Of a stretch of 64,000 nucleotides of DNA, positions 1 to 6,470 are shown in pieces. This DNA is from Halosolutus amylolyticus (GTDB taxonomy: Archaea; Halobacteriota; Halobacteria; Halobacteriales; Natrialbaceae). Each line of letters begins with the position of its first letter. Position 1 is the stretch's first letter. The stretch is from assembly GCF_023566055.1 (NCBI RefSeq), contig NZ_JALIQP010000001.1, positions 642,059 to 706,058 on the forward strand, read 5' to 3'. Made by a program: the position numbers and the translations under genes. The notes beneath the pieces are model-generated. The model was not told the DNA's origin. It was given only the letters and a program-made list of their open reading frames with translations, and did not search any database.

Positions 1-513
1 TTCGTGAATCTCACTGTACCTCATGTAGGCAATAGTGCCCATAGAGTTGCAGTCAATGCATTTTGCCCGGTACAGATTTTGGATTTCTTCCTTAACTGAA
101 TTCTCTACACGCTCGTAGGCATTATCTAGCGCATTGATATCGATTGGAGCAAGATTGTTCTTGGATATCCATGTAGCAGCTGGACTGACATCATTAAGAA
201 TAGTTTTCCGCCCACAAGATAGGGCTGCGACACCAGTCATACCACTACCACACATTGAATCAAGTACAACGTCACCTTCCTCCGTCAGTTGCTCAATGAA
301 ATACTGTATGGCCGGATAGGGTTTCTTGGTCCAGTAAGTATGAGAATATGCTATTGGATTTGTCCGATCTACTTCATCCTCAATTCCGACTGGAGGTTCC
401 GGATAGGAATCGTAATCGTCGTTAATCAGCGGAGACACGTCCCCATTCTCAAATGCCTCAAATGGTTCAGAGTGGAGATTGCCTTCGACTAGGTTATCTT
501 GTTTTCCAGTCAT
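1..513 (-). CDS. DNA methyltransferase (N-4/N-6 amino type), N-terminal part
   Basis: The reverse strand reads openly from an ATG at 513 to base 1 and continues off the left edge, giving the first 171 residues. Residues 83-94 read VLDSMCGSGMTG, an S-adenosylmethionine-binding motif I, followed by an acidic loop LNDVSP (106-111). Cys152 and Cys155 form a CxxC that may bind zinc. This pattern fits N-4/N-6 DNA methylases; the catalytic motif IV (D/NPPY) would lie beyond the edge and cannot be seen. No restriction endonuclease is adjacent inside the window, so it may be a solitary or defence-linked modification enzyme. It faces away from the HRAMP-like operon. Confidence 0.85.
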   Translation of the reverse strand, partial: MTGKQDNLVEGNLHSEPFEAFENGDVSPLINDDYDSYPEPPVGIEDEVDRTNPIAYSHTYWTKKPYPAIQYFIEQLTEEGDVVLDSMCGSGMTGVAALSCGRKTILNDVSPAATWISKNNLAPIDINALDNAYERVENSVKEEIQNLYRAKCIDCNSMGTIAYMRYSEIHE

Positions 514-767
514 ATTCTAAGGTGTCTCGTTGAGATGGTTAGGGGTTCACGGAAGGATGACTTAAAACCTGCCACAACTGCTGAGAGCACATATACAAAA
601 AACACTACCTTTGGGCGTTCTACAATACGGTTTCCGTGGCATAGCGAATTAGAATTAATATGATTATTTCTATATGCATGATTTTGGCCAACTATTAAAT
701 GTCAGGATAAGAATTTTATTGTTTTATTAGTATAATGTGGGGGTTAAAATGATGTATGATAGATATT

Positions 768-980
768 TCACTCAGAGTTCTTGCACACCACATCACGTAG
801 CTCCTCAAGAAGGTCCTCTCGATTCTCGGCTAGAATCTCGGTATCTTCGTCGATGTTTTCTATTTTCGTACGAATGCGACTGACGACTCGATACTGATAG
901 TTGTCAGAGACCTCTGCTTCCCCTCTTAGAATTTCTCGTTCACGCTCAGTAAGGAGTCCACGATACTGATCATCAACCAT
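768..980 (-). CDS. Small acidic haloarchaeal protein of unknown function
   Basis: A 70-residue reading frame beginning MVDDQYRGLLTERERE. It resembles a short haloarchaeal family, recurrent near mobile elements, that pairs an LTEREREIL(R)GE segment with a YRV.SRIR basic helix; I recognise the pattern but no function is assigned. It is mostly helical with a charged C-terminal half. The gene is divergent from the HRAMP-like operon, and the 210-base interval carries three palindromic operators, so the two units may share a regulator. The stretch 514-767 between this gene and the methyltransferase is AT-rich and holds no gene I can support. Confidence 0.75.
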   Translation of the reverse strand: MVDDQYRGLLTEREREILRGEAEVSDNYQYRVVSRIRTKIENIDEDTEILAENREDLLEELRDVVCKNSE

Positions 981-1015
981 ATCTCAGGATGGTCGGTCCA
1001 CTCCCATAGTACTTC

Positions 1016-1094
1016 TTACTGCCCTCAGTCACAAGATTATAATTTGGCACATGGGTTACTGCCTACAGTAATCTTAAGTGACTGCATGTAGTAA
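1016..1094 (+). promoter_or_regulatory. Promoter with three copies of a 16-bp palindromic operator
   Basis: Three related 16-bp sites lie at 1016-1031 (TTACTGCCCTCAGTCA), 1056-1071 (TTACTGCCTACAGTAA) and 1079-1094 (TGACTGCATGTAGTAA). Each is an inverted repeat around ACTG...CAGT or ACT...AGT. The first is just upstream and the others just downstream of a TATA-like TTATAATTT (1037-1045). A dimeric regulator bound here would cover the promoter of the operon starting at 1191 and could also affect the divergent gene at 768-980. That the sites are regulatory is inference from symmetry, repetition and placement. Confidence 0.55.
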
Positions 1095-1096
1095 TC

Positions 1097-1190
1097 AGAA
1101 TTGTGGAAGCTCGGCTCTATAGGGCGAGCCGGTCACAGCAAGTGCCCAGGTGGTAAGGACACCTGAGCCGGGCTCCCTGGAAGAGAACCC
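1097..1190 (+). ncRNA. Hairpin-rich leader / candidate structured RNA of the RAMP operon
   Basis: The interval between the promoter and the first ATG is GC-rich and dense in inverted repeats. A perfect hairpin CAGGTG-GTAAGGA-CACCTG spans 1147-1165. GGCTC (1113-1117) can pair with GAGCC at 1126-1130 or with the identical GAGCC at 1165-1169, and GAGCC at 1126-1130 can alternatively pair with GGCTC at 1171-1175, enclosing the central hairpin. GAGCCGG occurs exactly twice. Haloarchaeal mRNAs are usually leaderless, so a folded leader over 90 nt long is unusual. It may be a regulatory leader or a processed small RNA. No match to tRNA or another known RNA class was seen. Confidence 0.3.
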
Positions 1191-1631
1191 ATGAAAGAAT
1201 CAGAAATCCCTACTCAAGAAGCCATCGACAGGATACGGACTGAAGAGATAATACAATTACAACAAATTTCGCTCGGGGAAGGGGCCGCGACATGTTTGGT
1301 GTGCGTCACTTCTCTTTGTGAAGGAGATGAGGTTGTTGTGTACGTGTTTCGGCCGGCTGGAGAGGTGATGGTTCAGGTCGGGTACGTTCTGTGCGGTGAG
1401 GATCGGGACGGGTATCTGTCGGAGTTTACACTCGGCTTGCGAGAACTGCTCGTCAAGGGCCGTGTTGGTTGGTGCTCTGATGGGGCGATGCAGTCGTCGT
1501 GGCCGGTTCTGCTTGCTCCTGAAATATTGGGTGTGAGTGAGGCGGCGACGAAGTCGATTCGGTGGTGTGCGACTGCTGCCGACCAGGCTGAACCAGATGT
1601 ACCGAGTGCGGAAAGCGAGGTGGGGCGATGA
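1191..1631 (+). CDS. Unknown protein, first gene of the HRAMP-like operon
   Basis: A 146-residue protein beginning MKESEIPTQEAIDRIRTEEI. I do not recognise the family and see no catalytic motif. A beta-rich middle (GDEVVVYVFRPAG) is followed by a mixed region with several cysteines and tryptophans. Its stop codon overlaps the next start (ATGA at 1628-1631), so it is translationally coupled to the Cas7-like gene and is probably part of the same system. It follows the structured leader directly. Base use (G and T rich on the coding strand) matches the five genes downstream, which supports common ancestry of the whole cassette. Confidence 0.7.
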   Translation: MKESEIPTQEAIDRIRTEEIIQLQQISLGEGAATCLVCVTSLCEGDEVVVYVFRPAGEVMVQVGYVLCGEDRDGYLSEFTLGLRELLVKGRVGWCSDGAMQSSWPVLLAPEILGVSEAATKSIRWCATAADQAEPDVPSAESEVGR

Positions 1632-2599
1632 TGTCGAGTGACGAGCCAGAACTAGACGCGTCAGATCTCGATATCGAGCTGGAATTCCCACGGTCGCTCG
1701 ATGAGATGTTGCTGCCGGACGTGTACATTGGGCTCGAAATCGACCTGTTGTCACCTGGCGATGGGATCGTGACGGATCGACACCACGCCTCAGCAGATCG
1801 GTATGAGGCGGATGATCCGATGAATCAGATTGAGGGCCAGATTTCGCCGTTCACGTTGAGCGGTTGGCTGCGCCACGGGTGCGAGCAGGTGCTCCAGATT
1901 GCTGGTGCGTCGGCGTGTCATCCGGGTGAATCGGACGCGGATTATATGCGTGCGAACGTGTATGAGCGTGATCTGGAGTCCGGATACCATGAGAAGGGGA
2001 GTTGTCTCGACGATCACGATGATGGGTGTGTGGTATACGATTTGTTCGGTGGGTTCGGTGATCAGCCGGGGAAGTTGTTGCGTCGTCCGGTGTCGTTTTC
2101 GCCGATTCGGAGGAACGTAGATGTCCTGCAAGGTGAGGCGGAGGCTCATTACCGGCAAGTGTCGAATCAAGTCCGGTCGCGGAACGATGAGGACGGTGGG
2201 AAGCCGCTTCGGCAGGCGGATCGTGATGTGCTCGGGAACGTTGAGGGGACGTGGAAGTTGACGCTTCGGGAGTTGAAACCGGAGTTCGTCGGGTTGCTGC
2301 TGGAAGCCGTATCGTTCCTTGACTTGCATAGTGACGAGTTCGCGTTTCAGGTTGGTGGTGCACGGAATTTCGGCGCTGGGATCGCGGACGTGCGGGTTCT
2401 TAACCCGCTGTACTCTGAGCAGGAGGTGCGGCGCGTGTTCAACAGGGCGCAGGCGACGACATCGTCGATGGAGCAGAAGGATGCGGTGTGGGCGTCGGAG
2501 TGCCGACCTGAGTTTGTGCGGGCGTTGCAAGCGCGGACGGCGGCGCGTGATGGTGACTTACCGATGCCTGATGGTGGCTCGGGAGGTGAGTCGGCGTGA
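1628..2599 (+). CDS. Cas7-like RAMP-family protein (HRAMP-like system)
   Basis: A 323-residue protein with RAMP architecture. A first strand with YIGLEIDLLSPGDG (33-46) is followed by a helix GQISPFTLSGWLRHG (70-84), a variable insert (about 100-205), then GTWKLTLRELKPEFVGLLLEAV (207-228) and a glycine-rich loop VGGARNFGAG (242-251), the usual signature of RNA-binding Cas7/Csm3/Csc2-type ferredoxin-fold proteins. Such proteins polymerise along guide RNA in class 1 CRISPR effectors. No CRISPR array or cas1/cas2 lies nearby. With the Cas5-like gene at 3634 and nucleases downstream it fits the HRAMP arrangement described in haloarchaea. Start codon overlaps the previous stop; stop overlaps the next start (GTGA). 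Confidence 0.75.
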   Translation: MMSSDEPELDASDLDIELEFPRSLDEMLLPDVYIGLEIDLLSPGDGIVTDRHHASADRYEADDPMNQIEGQISPFTLSGWLRHGCEQVLQIAGASACHPGESDADYMRANVYERDLESGYHEKGSCLDDHDDGCVVYDLFGGFGDQPGKLLRRPVSFSPIRRNVDVLQGEAEAHYRQVSNQVRSRNDEDGGKPLRQADRDVLGNVEGTWKLTLRELKPEFVGLLLEAVSFLDLHSDEFAFQVGGARNFGAGIADVRVLNPLYSEQEVRRVFNRAQATTSSMEQKDAVWASECRPEFVRALQARTAARDGDLPMPDGGSGGESA

Positions 2600-2829
2600 C
2601 TGACGATCGTGATTCGACTTCGAATGCGGTGGATGAGCTAAACGAGTTAGCACCGGTGTCGTCGAAGTTACGGCCGGTGCAGGTTTCGGACCGTGACGGA
2701 GCGGTGTCTGAGCGTGGTGGAGACGTCGGGCAGTCGGAGTCTGGAGAGCTGAATGAGTTAGCGCTGGTGTCCACGGAGTTGCTTCCTGTTCAGGAGCAGT
2801 CGGAGGATGGTGGTGTTGATGAGCGATAG
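2596..2829 (+). CDS. Small acidic protein with an internal duplication
   Basis: A 77-residue product starting at GTG 2596, which overlaps the preceding stop as GTGA. It contains two copies of a segment, ELNELAPVSSKLRPVQ (about residues 14-29) and ELNELALVSTELLPVQ (about 51-66), separated by a Ser/Asp/Gly-rich linker. It is probably disordered apart from these two motifs, which suggests a bivalent peptide that binds two protomers of something, perhaps of the RAMP complex. No homologue is recognised. The gene overlaps the start of the next one. It is short and low in complexity, but its coupling on both sides supports it as real. Confidence 0.55.
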   Translation: MTDDRDSTSNAVDELNELAPVSSKLRPVQVSDRDGAVSERGGDVGQSESGELNELALVSTELLPVQEQSEDGGVDER

Positions 2830-3637
2830 TGGTGGGTCGTCGAGCGCGGGTGTGGATGACGTGGTTGGTGAAGTTGAGCCGATGGTGGCTACGTATCGGC
2901 ACGACGTTCACAAGGCCAGATCGCGGTCGCATGAGCATGCGGAGGATGTGTTTCGTGGTGTGCGGGTGAACGAGGACGTGCCGCTCGGCGCGGATCATGA
3001 TGCGGCGTTGTTGAGTCGGCCGCGCGGGAAGCCTGAGCGAACGCTGGATGCGCACGAGTCGTGGTTCCGCGTGTCGTTGCTGACTGGTGAAGTGGTGTCG
3101 ACGAGCGGGACAGTGGATGATGTCGATGTCGCATTACGTGAGGTGATCGAGAGTGATGATGCGGGCGCGTTGCACGAGGCGTGGTTGTCGAGTGATGTGC
3201 CGGCGATGTTCAACGAGTCGCCGTATTACCCGTACACGAGCCTGAAGTTCCACACGTTGCTCGTGGCGGCGTTGCTGGATAATTACCGGGCGGGGTTCGG
3301 GTTCGATGAGTTGTTCCTCGCGGTGTCGCTTCGTGACGCTGTCCCGGAAGTTGTGCCGCATCGGACGGTGTTGTCGACGGCAGGGTTCGCGTTGTACGTG
3401 ACTGGTGACCCAGCTGGGCGACCGGCGGCGCGGCTCGGTTCGCGGCCGGCACGGTCGTTCGCAGACGTGTGGTCTCGGCTTCCAGAGTTCCCGTTCGATG
3501 TGGATGCGTCGCGTCGGTGGCGCGTGTTGGATGCGCAGTTGCGGCGGATCCGGTCGTGGTCGGTCGCGTTGCAGTTCATCGAGGAGTACGTTGCGGCGCT
3601 AGGCCCGGCTGTTGAAGACGCGGAGGTGGTGGCATGA
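2819..3637 (+). CDS. Conserved uncharacterised component of the HRAMP-like operon
   Basis: A 272-residue protein counted from ATG 2819 (MSDSGGSSSAG); an alternative in-frame ATG lies at 2807, and both overlap the end of the preceding gene. After a disordered, low-complexity N-terminus (about 25 residues) the protein is predicted to be mainly helical, with conserved-looking aromatic patches such as FNESPYYPYTSLKFHTLLVAA. I see no nuclease or nucleotide-binding motif. Its place between Cas7-like and Cas5-like genes corresponds to the uncharacterised conserved protein reported for HRAMP loci; a large- or small-subunit-like role in a ribonucleoprotein is inference. Stop overlaps the next start (ATGA at 3634). 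Confidence 0.75.
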   Translation: MSDSGGSSSAGVDDVVGEVEPMVATYRHDVHKARSRSHEHAEDVFRGVRVNEDVPLGADHDAALLSRPRGKPERTLDAHESWFRVSLLTGEVVSTSGTVDDVDVALREVIESDDAGALHEAWLSSDVPAMFNESPYYPYTSLKFHTLLVAALLDNYRAGFGFDELFLAVSLRDAVPEVVPHRTVLSTAGFALYVTGDPAGRPAARLGSRPARSFADVWSRLPEFPFDVDASRRWRVLDAQLRRIRSWSVALQFIEEYVAALGPAVEDAEVVA

Positions 3638-4623
3638 CGGTGGTGCAGCAAGTGTTGTTCGAGTTGGAAGCGCAGTACTTCGGGCACCCATATGCTGTGT
3701 CGGGGAACGCGTTGTTCAACGCGATCGCGCGCCGAATGGATTCAGGGGACGCTCGAGCGTTACACGTGAGTCACGGCGTGTTCGTTCCGGGTGAGTACGG
3801 TGAGTTCCCGGCTGGTACGTCCCATGAGGGGTACGCGGGGAAACTCGGGCAGTCGCTTCCTGAGGTAGAATCGTGCGATGACTTGTTCATCCTTCGTGAC
3901 TCGGCGTACCGGTGGTTGTTGGATTCGCGGCCGCGAGATGCGCATAACGCGCACCCGTTACAGACGCATGGTGACCGGGTGGTGTTCGATTCGACGTGCT
4001 GGTTCGGTCGCCCGCCTGGCCAGCGGAATCGACGCAGATCCGTGTCGTGGTACGTACACTGCTACTTGCACGCTGATAGCGAGGATGTCCTTCCGTTATC
4101 CGAAGAAGTTCTTGACGAGTTGCGGGTCGGTGGTGGTCGGAATTACGGGTTCGGTGCGTTGTCGGTGGCTGATACGCAACTCGTGGATTTGGATGCGCTG
4201 GATTACTCGCGGGTTACGGAGGCTGCGGAGCTCGGTGAAGCGTTCTGGGTCGAACTCGTGTCGCCGTACGTGCTGGAGAGTGAGTTCCCGGGTGCTGACT
4301 CGCAGTCGGTGCCGTGGTGGTGGGACGTCGACATGGAGGCTCCCGGGACTGGCTCGTCCACTGAGACGATGGGTGGGCTACGTCGTCGGGAGACACGGTT
4401 CGTCGACGGCGCGGATTCACATGCCCTGGTGACGGTCGATCACGGGCAGGTTGTCGGCTACGCTGGTAGCGATCCGGTTGGGACGGCGAAAAACGGGGTG
4501 TTGCGTATCGGGACGCACTCCAGGTTCGGGTTCGGTGAGTTCCGGGTTCGCCCGGCGAGTGACGATCGTGTGCCTGAGCGTAGCCCTGTCGAAGGGGATG
4601 GTGTCGTTGAGGGTGATGCGTAA
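3634..4623 (+). CDS. Cas5-like RAMP-family protein (HRAMP-like system)
   Basis: A 329-residue protein with two RAMP-type glycine-rich loops: VGGGRNYGFG at 165-174 and IGTHSRFGFG at 292-301, each followed by a beta strand. The N-terminus VLFELEAQYFGHPYAVSGNALFNAIARRM resembles the first strand and helix of Cas5/Cas6 ferredoxin folds. Two such loops suggest two RAMP domains in one chain. A His-rich stretch (HNAHPLQTHGD, 104-114) could be functional but is not a recognised catalytic site. Cas5 proteins cap the 5' handle of guide RNA in class 1 complexes; whether this one processes or only binds RNA is open. Its ATG overlaps the preceding stop and its stop overlaps the exonuclease start (TAATG). 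Confidence 0.75.
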   Translation: MTVVQQVLFELEAQYFGHPYAVSGNALFNAIARRMDSGDARALHVSHGVFVPGEYGEFPAGTSHEGYAGKLGQSLPEVESCDDLFILRDSAYRWLLDSRPRDAHNAHPLQTHGDRVVFDSTCWFGRPPGQRNRRRSVSWYVHCYLHADSEDVLPLSEEVLDELRVGGGRNYGFGALSVADTQLVDLDALDYSRVTEAAELGEAFWVELVSPYVLESEFPGADSQSVPWWWDVDMEAPGTGSSTETMGGLRRRETRFVDGADSHALVTVDHGQVVGYAGSDPVGTAKNGVLRIGTHSRFGFGEFRVRPASDDRVPERSPVEGDGVVEGDA

Positions 4624-5288
4624 TGTCGGAGTTGACGCTGGTTGCGTTCGATATTGAGACGACTGGGTTCTCGGTGGATGATGAAGTGACGGTTGCAGGG
4701 TTCGCGTTCCCGCTGGGGGTTCGCGTGTTTGTCCAGACTGGTGGTCGGGACGCTGGTGGTGTTGCGGAGGTCGTGAAGGAGCGGGTGGAGTGTCACGTGC
4801 AATTGTCGACGCACGCGTCTGAGCGGGCGTTGTTGGAGGCGGTCGGGGAGTTCTCGCGTGACCGGTTGGCTGGTGATGACGTGTTGCTCGCGGCGTTTAA
4901 CGGGGAGACGTGGCGGTCTGGGTTCGATCTCCCGTTCTTGCGGACGCGGCTCACGCGGAACGATGTTGCGTGGCCGTTCGATGAGTTACCGTACACGGAT
5001 TTGCTGCCGCTCGTGTCGAAACGATTCAACACGACGGTTGGTGAGGATGAGTGCCGGGATCTCGTCGGCGTGTACGACACGTTGTGTGGCGGTTCGGCTG
5101 GCGAATTGGATCCGTTTGAGGAGTGCAGTGAGGCCGTCACAGCGTTCGAGAATAGTGAGTTCACACCGCTCGTGTTGCATAACGCGGCGGATGTCCTCAG
5201 GGCGCGAGAGTTAGGGTTGCTCGCGGAGCGGTACTGCTCGAAATCGGATTTTAAACTCAAGTCGTTGACTTCGACGAGGTATGGGTGA
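4623..5288 (+). CDS. DnaQ-like 3'-5' exonuclease (DEDD family)
   Basis: A 221-residue single-domain RNase H-fold exonuclease. Exo I is FDIETTGF (Asp10, Glu12), Exo II is FNGETWRSGFDLPFL (Asp102), and Exo III is HNAAD (His186, Asp190), so the DEDDh metal-binding set appears complete. Such enzymes trim DNA or RNA from the 3' end with two metal ions. The gene is coupled to the Cas5-like gene by a TAATG overlap, so it is likely a working part of the RAMP system: either target degradation or 3' trimming of a guide RNA. It lacks any polymerase domain. Confidence 0.85.
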   Translation: MSELTLVAFDIETTGFSVDDEVTVAGFAFPLGVRVFVQTGGRDAGGVAEVVKERVECHVQLSTHASERALLEAVGEFSRDRLAGDDVLLAAFNGETWRSGFDLPFLRTRLTRNDVAWPFDELPYTDLLPLVSKRFNTTVGEDECRDLVGVYDTLCGGSAGELDPFEECSEAVTAFENSEFTPLVLHNAADVLRARELGLLAERYCSKSDFKLKSLTSTRYG

Positions 5289-5414
5289 GGAACGGTCGTT
5301 GAGACTGTACTCGGGTGGTGTTGGGTTGTGAACTGCGAATTGAAGCGATACACCAGCAGGTAGTCATCGAGCGGTGTGGGACCGAACACGAATCGATAGA
5401 CGCAGTACGTAAGA

Positions 5415-6470
5415 ATGGAAGATACTGACCGACGATCTCACGACGAATCGAGTGACGAATCGACAACGAATGGGGACACCAGGGTGCTTGAGCCGGACGC
5501 GTGTCACGAAACGGTTGATCCGGAGACACGCGAGGCTGTGATGGAAGAGTACGGGCACAAGTGCCAGCTTTGTGGGCGGTGCGGGCCGGAGGAAAACGGG
5601 TTAGCAAAGTTGCACGCACATCACATTGAGCGGAATCCTGAGGACGTGGACGAGCACGACATGGAGAACCTCACGCTGATCTGCCGGGCGTGTCACAGTT
5701 GGCACCACCAACAATCGGAGCCGGAGGATGCCCCAGTGGACATTACTGAGGAGGATCTTACTGTTCTGTTACCGCAAGACATCGAGATCTTGCAAGTCCT
5801 CGCAGATGACGGGCCAGGACGGACGGGTGACATCGCGGGTGAATTGACGGCCGACTTGTCGGTCTCCGCGGTTCGAGAACGGTTGTGGGTGCTGATGGGG
5901 CTCGATAACCGTGTGGAATCACGTGACCGGCAAATCGTCGATAAAGACGTCGAGACGGGCGAGTGGGGGTTAACTGAGCAGGTCGAGAACTCGGCTCGCG
6001 GGCACATCCCGGACGATCAGCAACTGTTGTTGCAACGCATGGAGGATGAGCAGGTGCGGCGAGCGCTGGAGCGTGGATGTAACCGGAATGATGTGATCGA
6101 CGCATTCGGGATTACGCGCCGCACGACGTTCAACAAGATGAAGCGGGCGTACGCGTACGACTTCCCGCTGGATGCGTTCGGTCGCGGTGGGCGTCCATCT
6201 GAAGCAACTCGATCGGAACAGGATACACAGGTCACAGAGAGTGAGTCTGACGAGCAGCAACGACTTGATGACGTCACTGAGGAAGAAAGCAGTGATCTGG
6301 GAAGGACTGAAACGTGGGGCACGCCCGAACCAGACTCAGATGAACAAACAGCGCGAAATGGTGATCAACGAGACAAGCGATCAGTAGCGGAAGACAGCGT
6401 TAGTGAGGAACTGCGGACGCATCTTCAGCAAGCAATCAACTCGCTCCAAGAAATCAATTCAGCGCTCTAA
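5415..6470 (+). CDS. HNH endonuclease with helix-turn-helix-like region
   Basis: A 351-residue protein. Residues 47-95 form a zinc-supported HNH domain: Cys50/Cys53, LHAHH at 66-70, Asn85 and Cys90/Cys93-His94. The middle (about 110-190) looks like a winged-helix module; residues around 217-245 (GCNRNDVIDAFGITRRTTFNKM) read as a helix-turn-helix. The C-terminal 100 residues are acidic and probably disordered with a final coiled segment. It lies 126 bases after the exonuclease on the same strand, so it may be the DNA-cleaving nuclease of the HRAMP-like system, which is reported to use varied nucleases. Free-standing HNH genes are also common in haloarchaea, so membership is probable rather than proved. 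Confidence 0.85.
   Translation: MEDTDRRSHDESSDESTTNGDTRVLEPDACHETVDPETREAVMEEYGHKCQLCGRCGPEENGLAKLHAHHIERNPEDVDEHDMENLTLICRACHSWHHQQSEPEDAPVDITEEDLTVLLPQDIEILQVLADDGPGRTGDIAGELTADLSVSAVRERLWVLMGLDNRVESRDRQIVDKDVETGEWGLTEQVENSARGHIPDDQQLLLQRMEDEQVRRALERGCNRNDVIDAFGITRRTTFNKMKRAYAYDFPLDAFGRGGRPSEATRSEQDTQVTESESDEQQRLDDVTEEESSDLGRTETWGTPEPDSDEQTARNGDQRDKRSVAEDSVSEELRTHLQQAINSLQEINSAL

What the first reader, a model, noticed from the sequence alone, without database searches (positions are those of the whole stretch)
1097..1190. Structured leader upstream of the RAMP operon as candidate guide or regulatory RNA
The leader holds a perfect 6-bp hairpin (1147-1165) and a set of mutually exclusive pairings using GGCTC (1113, 1171) and GAGCC (1126, 1165). 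GAGCCGG occurs twice exactly. Haloarchaeal genes usually lack leaders, and this system has no array, so an RNA encoded at the operon head is a natural candidate for the missing guide, or for a switch that controls it.
Basis: partly seen in the sequence, partly recalled or inferred. Interest (0 to 1): 0.78.

Follow-up and report, generated by a model that had tools for sequence, protein, structure and literature searches.

The report
Switch-like mRNA leader widespread in haloarchaea
The stretch before this CRISPR-derived operon is a real, strongly conserved RNA structure that ends exactly at the start codon and can refold to cover it; the same element precedes many unrelated genes in salt-loving archaea, so it looks like a widespread gene-control RNA and not a guide RNA.

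Summary
Comparison settles it. Aligned leaders of HRAMP-type operons share a three-way junction (P1, P2, P3) with heavy covariation: 21 of 22 pairs change on both sides, score 0.483 against 0.199 shuffled. The 3' strand of P1 can instead pair with a segment that ends 0-1 nt before the AUG (P4). P1 and P4 cannot coexist, and P4 covaries across about 20 stem sequences. The element is not HRAMP-specific: the model matches 237 of 392 haloarchaeal genomes, 160 of them without the operon's marker gene. The 60 extra copies inspected mostly precede unrelated small genes, SWIM zinc-finger genes most often. Two HRAMP genomes showed no copy. No segment is hypervariable as a spacer would be. A guide role is therefore unlikely; a cis-acting switch at translation initiation fits best. 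The TATA-like box puts the transcript start at P1. Rfam 15 has no match. Expression, trigger and direction of switching are untested, and P4 is weak in the window's own copy.

The parts
1055..1072 (.). operator-like dyad GTTACTG-CCTA-CAGTAAT upstream of the TATA-like box
   Evidence: read from sequence; similar TTACT/AGTAA dyads in several other leaders' promoters; role inferred
1074..1079 (+). TATA-like box TTAAGT, about 28 nt before P1
   Evidence: over 155 leaders an A+T peak lies 28-32 nt before P1
1105..1117 (+). strand a: 5' strand of P1, predicted to lie at the transcript 5' end
   Evidence: fold; covariation helix 1
1122..1147 (+). P2 hairpin (1122-1126 with 1143-1147); the purine-rich 3' part of its loop is conserved in the family
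   Evidence: fold; helix 2; loop count
1147..1165 (+). P3 hairpin with 7-nt loop, the best conserved part of the element
   Evidence: 98.5% of cells paired; 0.002 substitutions per stem site
1165..1177 (+). strand b: 3' strand of P1, also 5' strand of the alternative hairpin P4
1185..1190 (+). strand c (GAACCC): 3' strand of P4, touching the start codon
   Evidence: P4 is weak in this copy (-4.0 kcal/mol)
1191..1235 (+). start codon and about 15-codon conserved N-terminal tag; codons 4 (TCA) and 9 (CAA) constrained at nucleotide level in the family
1191..1631 (+). first gene of the operon (146 aa); its family is replaced by unrelated ORFs at many other loci
1628..6470 (+). rest of the HRAMP-type operon: conserved 323-aa protein (1628-2599), 276 aa (2807-3637), Cmr3/Cas7-like 329 aa (3634-4623), DEDDh-like 221 aa (4623-5288), HNH 351 aa (5415-6470)

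Best explanation
Window 1103-1190 is the 5' untranslated leader of the operon mRNA and one copy of a haloarchaeal cis-regulatory RNA family. Shown by comparison: strands a and b close a three-way junction (P1, P2, P3) that starts where the TATA-like box predicts the transcript start; strand b can pair instead with strand c, which ends 0-1 nt before the AUG (P4); both helices are kept by compensatory change across unrelated downstream genes. Inferred: the nascent RNA first folds as the junction, leaving c and the AUG open (translation on). When P1 is opened, by a bound protein or ligand, an RNA that takes strand a, or cleavage, b takes c and buries the start region (off). The conserved P2 and P3 loops would be the sensing surface. 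The trigger and the direction are unknown.
For: 40 HRAMP leaders aligned by sequence alone: 12 of 17 predicted pairs have two-sided changes. 77 diverse copies: 21 of 22 junction pairs with two-sided changes, 90.9% of cells paired, score 0.483 against 0.199 shuffled, and at most 0.094 when slid. P4: score 0.229 against 0.115 shuffled; over 155 leaders own b:c pairing score 15.6 against 11.2 permuted, maximum 11.9 of 300, with about 20 stem sequences such as GGGTTC/GAACCC, GCTTCG/CGAAGC, GGTCTTC/GAAGACC, GGTTGTC/GACAACC. With strand a blocked, c is paired in 147 of 155, against 56 of 155 with shuffled c and 36 of 155 in the unconstrained fold. c ends at the AUG. G-U exceeds A-C in the P1 and P3 pairs (94 against 38), as expected for RNA of this strand. 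Found before unrelated ORFs. All listed matches in a phylum-wide sample lie in the same order. No hypervariable segment.
Against: No expression, probing or reporter data. The junction is about 6 kcal/mol more stable than the alternative (median), so switching needs an unidentified trigger. P4 in the window's own copy is weak (-4.0 kcal/mol, probability near 0). The downstream genes share no obvious theme that would name a ligand. Permutation controls keep column make-up but not relatedness.
Confidence: 0.68

Rival explanations
1. Guide RNA of HRAMP: the leader is cut out of the mRNA and loaded into the Cas5/Cas7-like complex as its missing guide.
For: Sits at the operon head in nearly all group-1 HRAMP loci; HRAMP-positive genomes carry it more often (77 of 93) than negative ones (160 of 299).
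Against: 160 genomes have the RNA without the marker gene, many in several copies; two HRAMP genomes and one further HRAMP locus show none; no spacer-like variable segment; c and the AUG are conserved, which a guide does not need.
Confidence: 0.04
2. Stand-alone structural small RNA: the junction is released from the mRNA and acts in trans as a protein-binding RNA; P4 is a by-product.
For: P3 and both loops are very conserved across unrelated contexts; some copies precede very short ORFs.
Against: Spacing to the AUG is fixed at 0-1 nt and b:c covaries independently; on the sense strand of the following ORF in the loci inspected.
Confidence: 0.1
3. Passive mRNA element: P1-P3 protect the 5' end from decay and P4 only keeps the AUG region free of other structure; nothing switches.
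For: The junction is strongly favoured thermodynamically and begins at the predicted 5' end.
Against: Does not explain why strand c changes along with b over about 20 stem sequences.
Confidence: 0.13
4. Mobile promoter-leader-tag cassette spread by recombination in front of passenger genes, with structure kept for its own spread.
For: Multi-copy (up to 10 matches per genome); leader plus tag conserved before unrelated ORFs; one copy lies next to TnpA/TnpB-like ORFs (L182; named from the sequence by eye).
Against: Terminal repeats and target duplications were not sought; G-U over A-C argues for RNA rather than DNA function.
Confidence: 0.05

Closest known systems
Translational riboswitches and autoregulatory leader RNAs (kind), e.g. 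the fluoride riboswitch of Thermococcus kodakarensis
   Same: 5' leader, conserved junction with conserved loops, a second helix that excludes the first and covers the translation start
   Different: No Rfam 15 match; P4 touches the AUG itself; the element runs on into a conserved coding tag; many unrelated genes; ligand unknown. Per PMC8241225 (2021) the fluoride riboswitch was the only archaeal one shown experimentally
HRAMP, array-less CRISPR-derived system of haloarchaea (Makarova et al. 2019; described in PMC8730458 and PMC12669027)
   Same: This operon has the described make-up: Cmr3/Cas7-like protein, HNH and exonuclease-like genes, no recognised Cas3 or Cas10
   Different: The leader RNA is not part of the descriptions read here and is not limited to the system; the original 2019 paper could not be read
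CRISPR RNA or other CRISPR-associated guide RNA
   Same: Encoded beside CRISPR-derived genes, carries hairpins
   Different: No spacer-like segment, one strong copy in this genome, frequent without the genes

Membership tests
Cis-regulatory 5' leader RNA (riboswitch-like kind) | Conserved secondary structure with compensatory changes | tested here: met
Cis-regulatory 5' leader RNA (riboswitch-like kind) | Fixed position in the 5' UTR relative to the start codon | tested here: met
   c ends 0-1 nt before the AUG at protein-anchored HRAMP loci and other loci
Cis-regulatory 5' leader RNA (riboswitch-like kind) | Mutually exclusive second helix, conserved | tested here: met
   weak in the window's own copy
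Cis-regulatory 5' leader RNA (riboswitch-like kind) | Identified ligand or binding protein | not testable with these tools
   needs binding experiments
Cis-regulatory 5' leader RNA (riboswitch-like kind) | Changes expression of the downstream gene | not testable with these tools
   needs reporters
Known Rfam family, including self-cleaving ribozymes in Rfam | Covariance model match | tested here: not met
   no match at E up to 5 in window 500-2000 or at E up to 1 in eight other loci
HRAMP guide RNA | Occurs only with the effector genes | tested here: not met
   160 of 237 positive genomes lack the Cas7-like gene
HRAMP guide RNA | Present wherever the effector is | tested here: not met
   absent from G173 and G196 by all three models and from the second HRAMP locus of this genome
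HRAMP guide RNA | Variable targeting segment | tested here: not met
   no leader segment varies clearly more than third codon positions
HRAMP guide RNA | Bound by the complex | not testable with these tools
   needs pull-down
HRAMP operon (protein side) | Diverged Cas7/Cas5 homologues with HNH nuclease | tested here: inconclusive
   3634-4623 weakly Cmr3/Cas7-III-D (1e-4), HNH clear; 1628-2599 has no family or PDB match and its structure model was too poor to use

The most novel reading that the evidence does not exclude
A previously undescribed class of native RNA switch, present in most haloarchaeal genomes, in which a three-way-junction sensor and the start codon compete for one strand. It would control a CRISPR-derived defence operon and a scattered set of zinc-finger and other small genes through one common signal.
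Probability: 0.4. Interest if true: 0.9.

Novelty: new variant of a known kind. Interest (0 to 1): 0.74.

Why it matters
Haloarchaeal mRNAs are mostly leaderless and structured leaders have been called untypical there (PMC4983044), while only one archaeal riboswitch had been shown by experiment as of PMC8241225. A covarying leader family in 237 of 392 genomes would show that RNA-based control of translation start is common in this group, give a tractable archaeal system for it (a copy lies on pNRC200 of Halobacterium salinarum NRC-1), and say how some HRAMP defence operons are kept in check. It also removes the leader as the obvious candidate for the missing HRAMP guide.

Tried and rejected
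Guide RNA: rejected on distribution and lack of a variable segment. DNA palindrome or recombination site: disfavoured because G-U exceeds A-C in the pairs. Known RNA families: none. tRNA: none at this site. A further hairpin P5 inside the coding tag: supported in part of the HRAMP group-2 leaders (own 12.6, permuted 10.6, maximum 11.5) but not in group 1, to which the window belongs, so not claimed here. Shine-Dalgarno: only weak enrichment (mean -4.5 against -3.2 shuffled). HRAMP marker in viral contigs: none found. AlphaFold model of the 1628-2599 protein: mean pLDDT 39.5, not used. The original HRAMP paper and a 2017 survey of candidate structured RNAs were not held, so a description of this RNA there cannot be excluded.

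Full report
Observation. The single-sequence fold of 1097-1190 is -36.8 kcal/mol, z -1.66, with 11 of 200 shuffles as good. Taken alone it would not be convincing.

Context. The operon 1191-6470 has an HNH protein (PF01844), a DEDDh/RNase H-like protein and a protein weakly similar to Cmr3 and Cas7 of type III-D, as described for HRAMP, the array-less CRISPR derivative of haloarchaea (PMC8730458, PMC12669027). The conserved 323-aa protein at 1628-2599 was used as marker. It was found in 20 named genomes, 32 of 125 genomes of the family and 93 of 392 of the order.

The leader is conserved as a structure. Upstream regions anchored on the first protein end in a strikingly similar stretch, although promoters and first genes differ. 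A plain sequence alignment of 40 leaders gives a consensus fold with P1 and P3, and 12 of 17 pairs with two-sided changes. A covariance model then found the element at more diverged HRAMP loci. On 77 diverse copies the three-way junction has 21 of 22 pairs with two-sided change, 90.9% of cells paired, and a covariation score of 0.483 against 0.199 in shuffles and at most 0.094 when slid. That alignment was fitted to the model and leans towards it; one search is free of this.

A second helix. Strand b, the 3' strand of P1, is complementary to strand c, which ends 0-1 nt before the AUG. In HRAMP group 1 this is mostly GGGTTC with GAACCC; in group 2 often GCTTC with GAAGC; elsewhere GGTCTTC with GAAGACC, GGTTGTC with GACAACC, GGTTTGT with ACAAACC and others. 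Strand c was unpaired in the model, so its pairing was not imposed. Over 155 leaders, own b:c pairing scores 15.6 against 11.2 when c is swapped among leaders (maximum 11.9 of 300); the column test gives 0.229 against 0.115. Strand a must also match b, so the three strands change together. When a is blocked in the folding program, c becomes paired in 147 of 155 leaders, against 56 with shuffled c; in the free fold it is paired in 36. The junction is the more stable state by a median of 6 kcal/mol. In the window's own copy P4 is reduced to GGG/CCC plus a short extension, -4.0 kcal/mol, so this copy may switch poorly or be a weak member.

Start of transcription. Over 155 leaders an A+T peak lies 28-32 nt before P1. 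At the usual archaeal spacing (established knowledge) transcripts would begin within a few nt of P1. This is inference; no transcript data were available.

Not specific to HRAMP. The model matches 237 of 392 genomes of the order at E up to 0.01, with up to 10 matches per genome. 77 of these have the marker gene and 160 do not; 16 genomes have the marker but no match to this model. Some of the 16 carry the GAAGC-type leader found by the second model; G173 and G196 showed nothing with any model. This genome's second HRAMP locus has no recognisable leader. I read 60 copies found by the model in detail. The ORF after the AUG is a SWIM-like zinc-finger protein in about a dozen by motif (Pfam PF04434 confirmed for the one submitted whole enough), and otherwise other small zinc-binding, Tat-signal or unclassified proteins; a few are degraded HRAMP first genes, and a few copies have lost the AUG or the ORF. 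A phylum-wide sample gave hits only within the same order. E-values come from a shortened calibration and are rough, and weak matches below about 40 bits were not all verified.

The tag. The first 10-16 codons after the AUG are similar across otherwise unrelated ORFs. In group 1, codon 4 is TCA in 38 of 56, while TCA is 33 of 420 serine codons later in the same genes, and codon 9 is CAA in 47 of 56. This points to constraint on the RNA as well as on the peptide. A hairpin there is supported for part of the family only.

Guide test. Among 44 pairs of close relatives no leader segment stands out as variable: P2 loop 0.161, P4 loop 0.151 and the P1-P2 joiner 0.231 substitutions per site, against 0.227 at third codon positions; P3 stem 0.002, c 0.027, b 0.031. 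A spacer would be expected to exceed the neutral-like level. With the distribution above, a guide role is unlikely, though binding by the complex was not tested.

Mechanism. The best-supported reading is a cis-acting switch at translation initiation: junction formed, c and AUG free (on); junction opened, P4 formed, start buried (off). The two helices, their exclusion and their position are shown by comparison. The on/off assignment, the trigger and any role of the loops are inferred. Published work stresses that 72% of Haloferax volcanii transcripts are leaderless and that structured leaders seem untypical (PMC4983044), which is why a family of this size is unexpected. A copy exists in Halobacterium salinarum NRC-1, pNRC200 219771-219867 minus strand, directly before annotated VNG_RS11530, and in strain 91-R6 at the head of its HRAMP operon, so public transcript data could test the claim at once.

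Noticed in passing
window 2596-2829: Small GTG-started ORF (77 aa) between the 323-aa and 276-aa genes holds the motif ELNELAxVSxxLxPVQ twice; acidic, looks disordered.
   Followed up: no
window 5415-6470: The HNH domain of the operon's last protein matches the IscB HNH region (NF040563, E 3e-8, far below the cut-off).
   Followed up: no
G000:C3:97873-98709 (L232): This genome has a second, diverged HRAMP locus that starts directly with the marker gene and has no recognisable leader.
   Followed up: partly
L206, L210, L214-L218, L220, L222, L224, L226: A second sub-family of the element with another coding tag (M-x-x-Y-x-P-x-R-H-K-R-L-A-R) and a hairpin CGAGAC-AUAAAC-GUCUCG inside it, changed to CGGGAU..GUCCCG in L224; the ORFs diverge after about 17 codons.
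   Followed up: partly
window 1055-1072; similar dyads before several other leaders: Dyad TTACTG-4-CAGTAA just upstream of the TATA-like box; other leaders carry other dyads around the promoter, as if different repressors act on the same kind of operon.
   Followed up: no
L102, L113, L181, L204: In several copies the conserved tag runs into a twin-arginine-like signal (RRQFLGAAAA), so the element can precede exported proteins.
   Followed up: no
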